Assembly: GCA_021432605.1 (NCBI GenBank)
Contig: MU271160.1
Location: forward strand, 1 to 64,000
Direction of reading: 5' to 3'
Source of the DNA: Coniochaeta sp. PMI_546
Lineage: Eukaryota > Ascomycota > Sordariomycetes > Coniochaetales > Coniochaetaceae
Length of the DNA: 64,000 nt
A program made the position numbers and the translations under genes. Under the pieces are notes generated by a model, which worked only from the letters and a program-made list of their open reading frames with translations, made no database searches and was not told the origin of the DNA. The number at the start of each line of letters is the position of its first letter. Position 1 is the first letter of the stretch. Shown in pieces: positions 1 to 3,449 of this stretch.

Positions 1-94
1 CCTAACCCTAACCCTAACCCTAACCCTAACCCTAACCCTAACCCTAACCCTAACCCTAACCCTAACCCTAACCCTAACCCTAACCCTAACCCTA
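1..94. repeat. Telomere repeat array (CCCTAA)n
   Basis: About 15-16 perfect tandem copies of the hexamer CCCTAA begin at the first base. Read outward on the other strand this is TTAGGG, the usual telomere repeat of filamentous ascomycetes. The array marks this end of the window as a true chromosome end. Confidence 0.98.
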
Positions 95-134
95 AGTAAC
101 CCTAAGTAACCCTAAGTAAGTAACCCTAAGTACC
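92..134. repeat. Variant telomere repeats with GTAA insertions
   Basis: After the perfect hexamers the unit changes to ten-base units of the form CCCTAAGTAA, repeated about three times, then an irregular AAGTAACCCTAAGTAC. These look like degenerate or mis-templated telomere repeats at the junction between the array and the subtelomere. The bases just inside the junction belong to a decayed coding frame. Confidence 0.85.
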
Positions 135-1761
135 TTGCGAACTCCGCCTAGAACGCGAGTACCGTTTCTACGTCTACCTCGTCCAGTTCCTTCGGTTGTC
201 TTTCGAAGCCGGCCTCCAAAAAGAACAGCCGCGACCACCATAGTACGCCAGCGAGCAACCTTGTATACAAATGCGGCTCGGTAAAGCCTAACGGCCGCGC
301 CGTAATGCCTATTATTACGCAAAAGTATAGTAGCGGGCTTGCGTACGTTCTACCGCCGACCTTCTACTTGATAGAAGCTACTATGAGTAAAAATACCGCC
401 CGGTCGAGCTTGTCGGTCGGTCTCGTCGCGTTGTCGCCTACGCTATCCCCTATATCGTCCCCTACGTTATCTCTTACGTCGTCACTTTCGCTTCCTTCGT
501 CCTACTCTTCGTCTCCTCTGTCGTTAGAATACCCGTTATCCTAGCTACAGTTCTCTAGCTCGCTTAGCGCGTCTAATTCGTATACTACGTCTCCTAGCAA
601 GCTCTACTGTTCGTCCGTAAAGTAAACGGCTAGTTGGTCATACGCCTGCTCGCGCCTTACCTAGTATGCCCGTAAGCAAAAGCCCAAATAGCGTTGGCCG
701 ACCGACTTATACTTGCCTATCGACGTCTCTTTGCCTTTCCGCCCGAACGGCACGCCGGCCACGGCTATCGACGATATGCCCGCCAACTATTATAGCGACT
801 CGATCGGTACGCTATCTAGCCTCCAGTAATATCGTTTTACCTCTCGGTCGAAGCTTTCCGCTAGCCGTATCAAACGTATCCGTTCGCGGAACGTGTTTTC
901 GTCTTCGGCCTATTGCTACCGGTCCTTCGCCCCTCTTGCCCTAACCTACTCGGCGGCCTTATATACCTCGAGCTTATCCCTACTGCCGAAATGCCGTACC
1001 TAGCCTAGCCTTTTTACCCAAGCCGAATCGCGGTCTAAGTCCTCCTCGACGTCGCCCTATCGTAGCCGTACCTTGTCTTCCGCCTCTAGTTCTGTTACGG
1101 ACTCGGCGATTATCTTTTCCGCCGTGCTATCGTTCGTTACGTATTCTTCGTCCTACTTCTCGGCCCCGTACTTGACGATCTAATACCGTACGTAGTTACC
1201 GTGTAGCCAAGTCTGTAGCCGTACTTGTATCCATCTTGTTTCGGCTATACCGTATCTTGCCGTCCTCTAGTACCGTATGATATTGTCGTATGTCTTAGTT
1301 AAATACCGGTACGCTATATAGCTAAACCTATATATTACCTTAAGCGGCTGGATCGTTACGGTGCCGTCGGCCGGTAGCTTTGCGGTCTTCGGATCGCTTA
1401 GCTGTACGTTATTATAATAGTCCCGGATATCGTATAAGATCTGTCTTTTGAGCTGATACTCTCGTCTGAAATACGGTTCGATACTACGGCCCGGGCGGAC
1501 TACAGTTGTATATAGTCGATATATAAGCATCTGGTACGCCTCCTCCACTTTTACGTACTACTCTATTGTATCTGAACGTATAGTTAGTTCGGTGATTGAA
1601 GTATACCTTGCTTTTCTATCGTATATATTCTTTAGTATATACCTAAATGCGACCGTCTTGTACGGGTTGACGCGTTCAACTATCGCCGTAATTACGCTTA
1701 TTTGGTTACCCCTATCAGCCCCTATTCCTAGCTCTAGTCCGACCGCGACAACCTCAATCAC
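135..1761 (-). pseudogene. RIP-inactivated, telomere-truncated telomere-linked helicase-type ORF
   Basis: One minus-strand frame can be read from about 1761 to the telomere junction with no frameshift, broken only by TAG/TAA codons (for example at 1558-1560 and 1267-1269). Many stops sit where Trp or Gln is expected: in the frame near 1000 a WVKRLG segment is followed by a stop and then VRHF, as if TGG became TAG. TpA is very common and CpA nearly absent: bases 1261-1320 hold 12 TpA and no CpA. This is the RIP signature (CpA to TpA on both strands). The order of recognisable blocks, a W-x-K-R-x-G-W-like motif and then a LDRA...SPLLYF...LLAGVLWW region, resembles the large subtelomeric ORFs often linked to RecQ-like telomere-linked helicases in ascomycetes. 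That family assignment is from memory and tentative. The frame runs straight into the telomere repeats, so the gene's 3' part is lost. Confidence 0.6.
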
Positions 1762-2108
1762 CCGTTACTAAGCTTACTACGTATGAGCTTTACGTGCCGC
1801 CAAGTAGTCAAGTGCCTAAGAGCGTAAACTAAGCTGTAGTCTTGGTGCTCATGAGCACTAACGCTTTACCTTGTTACAATACTCACGAGCGTAAATAGGC
1901 GGGTTACGCCGGGGAAGCTAACCCAAACCCTAAGCTTGACTCCATGTGAACCCTAAGTTTTGGACCAATCAATTGGCGGGCCTTACGACAACCGTTTCTG
2001 TAGCAAAGCTCGGGCTACCTTTTCCGCTTTGTATGGCCGTTTATGGCAGAAACGGCCGCGAATAATACCTAGGATCACCTTCTTAGAAGAGTAAGCTTTC
2101 CTGTCGCA
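1762..2108. other. Spacer at the inner edge of the RIP tract
   Basis: CpA and TpG become common again from about 1780 onward. Two telomere-like ACCCTAAG strings occur near 1928 and 1950. No coding frame is supported. Confidence 0.5.
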
Positions 2109-3449
2109 GTGTCCGAGAACAACGAGCAGAAGGTCGCAGAGGACGACCCCGACCAGGCTCCCCGCCGCAGCATTATCGGCCATGCGCCAAGGATACCCTA
2201 CCCTTGTCCAACTGCAACGAGTCAGACCTCTATAATCACCTGCCAGAGCAACCCTAACGTAGAGTTTCCGACTACCCCTTCTGTCACCTCTTCCCAGACT
2301 ACGAATACATCGACCAAATCCCGAGCACGCAGTCTCAGCCCGACCAAGAAGACACAGAACCCTGGTGGCGCTGAGAAAGCCGATCCATCATATCGCGATC
2401 CAGGACAACGCGACCAACCAACCGCCACAAGACGTTCGCGGACTTTACAATCGGCTGTACGACATCACGGTGGAGCACTGACGCATTCTTGCTGGGGGAA
2501 GCACGGGAAATATCTGTCAGGCTGTAGGACGAAGGATAATATTTCGGAAGAGGGAGGGCGATGCATCTACAGTTGGTACCTCATCTTGCGGAGAGGATAC
2601 TCGGAAGGCGCAGGAACAAGCATGCACAACCGCTCTAACCGAGCTTGACAGGTTGCGCAAGCTCGAAAATGCAACATGGGAGTGCCGCGGACTCGGCCGC
2701 TGGGAGGCAGCCTGGAACTTGGAGGTTCATAGCCCACTCCTTGAGCTCGGCCTAGCTCATCATGGCCATACAAGGAGGGAACTAGTCACAATGGCGCAGA
2801 TCTCGAAAGCCTTTCTCCCACCTATGGATTCATTTTCTGCTACCGACTACGTTGACAGTAAGATGGTGGATTTCGTCCTAGTGCTCGCCCACATGGCTCG
2901 CGACATGATGAACAAACACCTGGGGAAAACGACAGCTCCAATGCTGGAGACAAGGGCGAGTATGGGCGCCTGGCACAGGCATTCAAGGAGGAGGTATAAT
3001 CGCAGCCACTAGGCTTCCAGTCTATCAATCAGACGGTGTACACGCCGTTGCTCTCCACGCCGATTGGGGTCAGTATCGAGACCAATGCAGATGGCGTAAG
3101 CGAAGAAGGGCGGATTCAGCTCGCTATCTGGGAGGCCGCATGGCATCAAATGATGAGCTATTCCCTCGGGGAACGCCGTGGCCGTAGTAGAGGGCCTGAT
3201 GGTTCCAGCCTCGTCTCGGATGGCGAGACTAGCAGGGTTGTCACGCTGCCGGCTCTTCTTATCATTGAGCACACATGGGTGCTATCGTTTGTTTGCGATA
3301 GAGGTGACAGGCTTGAGATTGTTAGAGATATGCCCCTAGATGACACAGGGAGTATCCTAGGATCATATACACTTCTAGCTGTAGTCCGCGAGCTGGGAGA
3401 CTGGATTCAAGGGCTATTTCGGTCATGGATCAGCGACTTGCTGTCTTGA
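2109..3449 (+). pseudogene. PD-(D/E)XK nuclease-like domain protein, frameshifted
   Basis: Three plus-strand pieces (about 2109-2648, 2653-2940 and 2943-3449) align in order with the fungal PD-(D/E)XK nuclease-like family. The start is a low-complexity Ser/Thr/Pro-rich N-terminus with an SLSPTKK motif. Next comes WNLEVHSPLLELGL, then KMVDFVLVL. After that follow PIGVSIETN, an LQ-x-WEAAWH-like helix, and a C-terminal GSYTLLAVVRELGDWIQGLF helix. The pieces lie in different frames. The frame that gives the C-terminus carries a TAA at 2997-2999, and two or more indels are needed to join the protein. Unlike its telomere-side neighbour it shows no RIP bias. The family is common in ascomycete subtelomeres and its members have no settled function. 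An unrecognised intron could explain one of the joins, so complete loss of function is likely but not proven. Confidence 0.65.

What the first reader, a model, noticed from the sequence alone, without database searches (positions are those of the whole stretch)
135..1780. RIP-mutated subtelomeric ORF still readable in one frame
Over about 1.6 kb the minus strand keeps one uninterrupted frame, apart from TAG/TAA stops at sites that read as former Trp or Gln codons. CpA is nearly absent and TpA is extreme (12 TpA and 0 CpA in 1261-1320). Change by transitions with no indels points to RIP acting on a once multi-copy gene, most likely a telomere-linked helicase-type ORF. The family call is from memory.
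Basis: partly seen in the sequence, partly recalled or inferred. Interest (0 to 1): 0.75.

Follow-up and report, generated by a model that had tools for sequence, protein, structure and literature searches.

The report
RIP-scarred telomere helicase element
The end of this fungal chromosome carries the broken front part of a telomere-linked helicase gene, a known kind of chromosome-end repeat, apparently inactivated by the fungus's own repeat-mutating defence; related copies in the same genome share one exact edge, as a mobile element would.

Summary
Window 135-1780 has TpA/ApT 1.89 and (CpA+TpG)/(ApC+GpT) 0.38; 302 sliding windows of the rest never exceed 0.92 or fall below 1.06. The same genome yielded seven more copies, four of them long. 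Across the eight, 335 of 336 variable columns are transitions and the alignments have no gaps; 315 of the 335 lie at CpA or CpT, and CpG is spared. Where one copy has a stop and another a sense codon, that codon is always Gln or Trp. This is RIP.

The gene is a telomere-linked helicase (TLH). The window copy, cut by its telomere, keeps the N-terminal OrsD region (matched on the C1 copy); the C5 copy continues in frame into DEAD and Helicase_C. No unmutated copy was among the matches.

New here: the element ends at window 2073. All eight copies stop there, one a base short, against different flanks, facing away from the telomere in 7 of 7 telomere-bearing contigs. Five testable junctions share bases with related unfilled sites. 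This suggests a terminus-specific, directional chromosome-end element. A tyrosine-recombinase domain is possible but unproven.

The parts
1..95 (.). perfect telomere array (CCTAAC)n
87..132 (.). variant telomere words CCCTAAGTAA at the telomere-element junction; seen at 6 of 10 chromosome ends examined
131..2073 (-). TLH-1 element, window copy, cut by the telomere on its distal side; RIP-mutated
135..1764 (-). remaining N-terminal part of the TLH reading frame; 17 of the 21 stops of 135-1780 lie here
1258..1548 (-). OrsD (PF12013, formerly DUF3505) region; the match is on the C1 copy (E 1.2e-7), the window's own piece gives none
2035..2057 (.). inverted repeat just inside the terminus, 11-base arms; folding z-score about -2
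2058..2073 (.). fixed terminus GCGAATAATACCTAGG, shared by eight copies (C21 one base short)
2074..2300 (.). flank beyond the terminus; no other match to it in the genome

Best explanation
The window ends in a telomere-linked helicase (TLH) element of at least about 4.3 kb. Its long gene reads from a fixed centromere-side terminus (window 2073) towards the telomere: OrsD-type N-terminal region, a middle region, then a RecQ-like DEAD/Helicase_C core. Near-identical copies became attached in one direction to several chromosome ends. Most were shortened from the telomere side and capped by telomere repeats, so that the window copy keeps only the N-terminal part. The copies were recognised as repeats and mutated by RIP (C to T at CpA and CpT on both strands), which put stops into every long copy. 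Shown: copies, fixed end, shared direction, telomere capping, transition-only divergence, domains. Inferred: that attachment is an activity of the element, that telomerase did the capping, the order of events, and that the mutations came from the RIP machinery itself (no RID gene was sought).
For: Seven further copies in the genome. 335 of 336 variable columns are transitions, no gaps; 166 of 176 C/T columns at CpT or CpA and 149 of 159 A/G columns at TpG or ApG; 85 of 88 CpT sites have an invariant T. CpG count 173-174 in each of the five long copies. Stop-to-sense comparison only CAG, CAA, TGG. DEAD (E 6.7e-7) and Helicase_C (E 4.8e-5), both over Pfam's cut-offs, in the C5 frame. OrsD on the C1 copy. 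Shared terminus in eight of eight copies. Six copies capped directly by telomere repeats.
Against: No unmutated copy was found, so the ancestral gene and the native composition are not known. The Pfam scores are modest, only 0.5 to 3.6 bits above the helicase cut-offs. No RID or other RIP gene was looked for. The species is unknown. The spread could be recombination between ends (see rivals).
Confidence: 0.88

Rival explanations
1. The TLH spread only by ordinary recombination or break-induced copying between chromosome ends, with no activity of its own; 2073 is simply the edge of the first duplicated block.
For: Known for subtelomeric families; one shared direction is expected from end-to-end copying; the C. 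higginsianum authors explain nearby segmental duplications by recombination at such repeats (PMC5576322, passages).
Against: Copying by homology should carry flanking homology past the edge; here different sequence starts at the same base in eight copies, and a second family shows the same style of end and shared junction bases.
Confidence: 0.45
2. No RIP: the composition is native to a CpG-rich and TpA-rich repeat and the stops are ordinary decay.
For: G+C is not lowered (0.495) and CpG is high, unlike the AT-rich RIP product beyond the C5 copy (G+C about 0.3).
Against: 335 of 336 differences between copies are transitions, 315 of them at CpA or CpT, with no indels; stops correspond only to Gln and Trp codons.
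Confidence: 0.03
3. Helitron-like rolling-circle element: the 2073 end, with a hairpin 11 bases before CTAG, is a Helitron 3' end.
For: Inverted repeat 2035-2057 followed by 11 bases and CTAG; REPET gave the comparable C. higginsianum family a DHX code (PMC5576322, passages; that DH stands for Helitron is recalled).
Against: The base after CTAG is G in seven copies and A in one, never the T expected of a Helitron (expectation recalled). No Rep domain in the C5 copy, though that copy may lack its far end. The helicase gene would be antisense. The hairpin is only about two standard deviations better than shuffles.
Confidence: 0.05

Closest known systems
Subtelomeric repeat families DHX_G198, DHX-chim_G203 and DTX-chim_G199 of Colletotrichum higginsianum (PMC5576322, passages read)
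   Same: Helicase plus DUF3505 (OrsD) domains; one direction relative to the telomere; lie between telomere and chromosome-unique sequence; CpG-rich-looking base composition (42% A+T in DHX_G198)
   Different: Those are 11-18 kb, full length and at all 24 subtelomeres; here every copy found is truncated and RIP-mutated, and several telomeres lack it. A base-exact terminus is not mentioned in the passages I saw
TLH regions of Fusarium oxysporum (PMC12857005, passages read)
   Same: Helicase genes at chromosome ends, full and truncated copies
   Different: There they sit with FoTeR retrotransposons; RIP is reported there for FoTeRs; no such retrotransposon was seen in the window copy
Subtelomeric RecQ family of Zymoseptoria tritici / Mycosphaerella graminicola (PMC4522978, passages read)
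   Same: RecQ-like subtelomeric family, full and truncated copies, in a genome with CpA-to-TpA RIP-like bias
   Different: G+C 34.7% there, about 50% here
Subtelomeric RecQ helicases of Agaricus bisporus var. burnettii (PMC7473861, passages read)
   Same: Subtelomeric RecQ-like family, partly truncated
   Different: The authors found no domain besides the helicase core in these or other fungi; here OrsD matches, and the middle region looks recombinase-like to me (unproven)

Membership tests
Telomere-linked helicase (TLH) | RecQ-like helicase core | tested here: met
   PF00270 and PF00271 over cut-off in the C5 copy; the window copy lacks this part
Telomere-linked helicase (TLH) | several copies next to telomeres | tested here: met
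   six copies capped directly by telomere repeats, a seventh about 2 kb from one
Telomere-linked helicase (TLH) | OrsD/DUF3505 region, as in C. higginsianum | tested here: met
   C1 copy E 1.2e-7; not detected in the window or C5 copies
RIP | C:G to T:A transitions in repeated DNA | tested here: met
   335 of 336 variable columns in eight copies
RIP | CpA preference | tested here: met
   CpA and TpG depleted 2- to 4-fold; CpT is also hit
RIP | RID methyltransferase and passage through the sexual cycle | not tested
   no search for RID was made
Tyrosine recombinase element (Crypton-like) | recombinase fold with R, H/K-x-x-R and Y boxes | tested here: inconclusive
   motif by eye; no Pfam, PHROGs or PDB match; hhalign without power
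Helitron | Rep domain | tested here: inconclusive
   none in the C5 copy, which may be incomplete
Helitron | T directly after the CTRR end | tested here: not met
   G in seven copies, A in one; feature recalled

The most novel reading that the evidence does not exclude
TLH elements are true mobile elements: one protein joins an OrsD-type N-terminus, a tyrosine-recombinase-like domain and a RecQ-like helicase. The recombinase joins the element's fixed TAG(G)-ending terminus, in one direction, to G-rich sites at or near chromosome ends, and the far side is capped by telomere. Subtelomeric helicases would then be selfish chromosome-end transposons and not host genes that happen to lie there.
Probability: 0.3. 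Interest if true: 0.8.

Novelty: new member of a known kind. Interest (0 to 1): 0.42.

Why it matters
Why RecQ-like helicase genes sit at so many fungal chromosome ends is an open question, often answered by a host role in telomere upkeep. A family whose copies end at one base, in one direction, against different flanks points instead, or as well, to an element that gets itself to chromosome ends, and gives a concrete terminus and target to test. The copies are also a clean RIP record: eight copies, 335 of 336 differences transitions, CpA and CpT hit, CpG left alone.

Tried and rejected
Rejected or set low: non-RIP decay; Helitron; frame openness as evidence for the gene. A relative of the middle region was sought in viral contigs and not found. 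Rfam and tRNA scans of the window were empty. The host was not identified: a paper search on its genome size gave no paper; no 5.8S rRNA was found; uL3 is closest, among PDB chains, to 7r81 (Neurospora crassa, recalled); a scytalone dehydratase exon is clearly diverged from 4std (Pyricularia, recalled).

Recombinase idea. No sequence search supports it: Pfam, PDB, PHROGs, hhalign against XerD (probability 0.16) and against a mixed XerD, lambda and P2 set (0.32), hhalign against the DUF3435 match of this genome (0.23). The XerD test has little power: the DUF3435 match, a family of fungal tyrosine recombinases (recalled), also fails it (0.77), although lambda and P2 integrases pass (94.3 and 99.0). 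The first-box pattern occurs in 17 of 20,000 shuffles, both boxes in range in 1 of 20,000, and in none of 194 ORFs of the window and three loci; but it was written after I saw the sequence, and it hits 0 of 81 XerD proteins, so it is a lead only. For it: the second family keeps this stretch (50% over 30 residues, E 1.2e-5).

Junction count. Of ten centromere-side junctions (eight TLH-1, two TLH-2) five could be compared with a related unfilled site. C18, C21, C1 and the TLH-1 junction of C16 had no related site: for C18 in the whole genome, for the others only among loci held. At C7 the junction was not resolved. Shared bases: C24 3 at two of three related places, 0 at the third and weakest; C5 4 (one place); C23 1 at nine of 12 places, 2 at two, 4 at one; C11 2 and 1 (two places). 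TLH-2 in TLH-1 on C16: 5 against the ATAGG of six of the seven other TLH-1 copies, but only 2 against the ATGGG of C1, which may be the unmutated state. The sum is 14 (chance 4e-6), 11 with the C1 reading (1.2e-4), 8 if C24 is also set to 0 (0.003). The related sites are not proven to be the true targets.

Papers. Nine paper searches were read as listings; passages were read of PMC12857005, PMC8381367, PMC5576322, PMC4522978, PMC7473861 and PMC3627910; no paper was read whole. I do not claim that a recombinase domain in TLH is not in print: searches listed no paper on one, in a library that lacks most subscription papers and all preprints.

Full report
What was claimed and what is there. The composition is real: 135-1780 has TpA/ApT 1.89 and (CpA+TpG)/(ApC+GpT) 0.38, against 0.68 and 1.23 for 2074-64000; of 302 sliding windows of equal length there, none exceeds 0.92 or falls below 1.06. 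In 500-base steps the four windows up to 2000 stand apart from the other 124. The frame has 18 TAG, 3 TAA and no TGA, but one plus-strand frame is more open, so the frame needed other support.

Copies. The genome that holds the window (G000, 33.5 Mb, 24 contigs; the window is C18:1-64000) gave seven more copies: C24, C5, C23, C1, C21, C11 and C16. Each aligns to its part of window 131-2073 without a gap; C21, C11 and C16 are short (707, 259 and 179 columns). Of 336 variable columns 176 are C/T, 159 A/G and one A/C. The C of C/T columns is followed by T (88), A (78), C (5) or G (5); the G of A/G columns is preceded by T (101), A (48), C (8) or G (2). The T of the CpT sites is invariant in 85 of 88 columns, so these are real CpT sites. 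CpG counts are 174, 173, 173, 173 and 174 in the five long copies. This is RIP with CpA and CpT as substrates and CpG spared, which explains why G+C stays near 0.5. Strand balance differs by copy: C5 has 66 CpA and 27 TpG, C18 43 and 71.

Stops. In the window's frame 38 codons are stops in at least one copy; 7 are stops in every copy present, and at the other 31 the sense codon of another copy is always CAG, CAA or TGG. The five long copies have 10 to 22 stops each over the stretch compared. Searches of the genome with the window stretch, the distal element, the helicase and the middle region returned no unmutated copy; the other helicase matches are open frames at C2 (28% identity) and C14 (20%). 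These searches score only the best candidates.

What the gene is. The C5 copy is the longest (about L041:104-4443). Its frame, X at each stop, gives PF00270 DEAD (E 6.7e-7, 29.6 bits, cut-off 26) and PF00271 Helicase_C (E 4.8e-5, 24 bits, cut-off 23.5). C23 matches that region at 85% with six stops. OrsD (PF12013, formerly DUF3505) is matched on the C1 copy at C1:4341795-4342085, which is window 1258-1548, E 1.2e-7 alone; the window's own piece gives none, and neither does the C5 frame. Helicase plus DUF3505 at chromosome ends, in one direction, between telomere and unique sequence, is what was described for Colletotrichum higginsianum (PMC5576322, passages). TLH families are described in Fusarium oxysporum, Zymoseptoria tritici and Agaricus. 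The object is a member of a known kind.

The fixed end. All eight copies end at window 2073, C21 one base short, and different sequence follows in each. Seven lie on contigs whose near end is telomere repeats, and in all seven this end faces away from the telomere. On the other side six copies are cut at different points directly by telomere repeats. A variant word CCCTAAGTAA lies at the inner edge of the telomere at 6 of 10 ends examined, C4 right among them, which has no TLH match. C24 sits beside GAGGTCT-type minisatellite on both sides; its contig start has no telomere. Not all telomeres carry TLH-1: C2 left and C4 right do not, and C5 right, C7 right and C12 right, listed with telomere repeats, gave no match.

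A second family. On C16 the 179-base TLH-1 remnant is joined to another OrsD-bearing (C16:1229-1549), RIP-like sequence that aligns without gaps to C7:5724-7027 at 89% over 1304 bases. The alignment ends in GGATAGG; at C7 two more 21-base units follow, the last ending GGATAG. So this family too ends in TAG or TAGG. It keeps the middle stretch of TLH-1 (50% over 30 residues, E 1.2e-5) and at C7 is followed by LTR-retrotransposon sequence (type by my reading).

Junctions. Four TLH-1 flanks lie in repeats with relatives, so that an unfilled site can be compared, and at C16 the neighbour is TLH-1 itself. Shared bases: C24 3 (0 at the weakest of three places), C5 4, C23 1 or more, C11 1-2, C16 5 or 2. 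Sums of 14, 11 and 8 have chance probabilities of 4e-6, 1.2e-4 and 0.003. A recombinase with a short core or microhomology joining would both do this.

Possible recombinase. Between OrsD and the helicase the C5 and C23 copies have a stretch that to my eye shows the three boxes of tyrosine recombinases: R-x-P-E-L-x-x-L-x-Y-N-D, a Y-R stretch, and Y (perhaps once H) with Y nine residues on (knowledge of the boxes is recalled). No search supports it, and the profile test has little power. It stays a hypothesis.

Weights. A RIP-inactivated TLH element: 0.88. Given that, spread by a terminus-specific activity of the element and not only by recombination between ends: about 0.5. That the enzyme is a tyrosine recombinase in the same protein: 0.3. 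The order of events is inferred. One transversion column in 336 says that the copies were almost identical when RIP acted and that little other mutation has followed.

Noticed in passing
G000 C16:747-2050 and C7:5724-7027: A second, divergent TLH family, RIP-mutated, next to telomeres; on C16 it is joined to a 179-base remnant of the first family.
   Followed up: partly
window 87-132; ends of C23, C1, C21, C16, C4: Variant telomere word CCCTAAGTAA at the inner edge of the telomere at 6 of 10 ends examined, with or without the element; perhaps a trace of how new telomeres are started.
   Followed up: partly
G000 C16:546-742: An LTR-like stretch of about 195 bases with some 40 matches in the genome, several in pairs about 6.4 kb apart.
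   Followed up: no
G000 C3:598224-599303 (L066): A DUF3435 (PF11917) match, the family of Starship captain recombinases (recalled), with three stops inside.
   Followed up: partly
L041:4501-8500 (C5): AT-rich (G+C 0.26-0.32) DNA, almost free of CpA and TpG up to about 8000, directly inside the C5 copy: RIP-mutated transposon DNA of quite different composition from the TLH.
   Followed up: no
window 2073-3012: Two overlapping plus-strand open frames in different phases right at the element edge, perhaps the remains of a gene cut by the attachment.
   Followed up: no
C24:12926-12935: Ten N with the same sequence on both sides, probably an assembly join.
   Followed up: no
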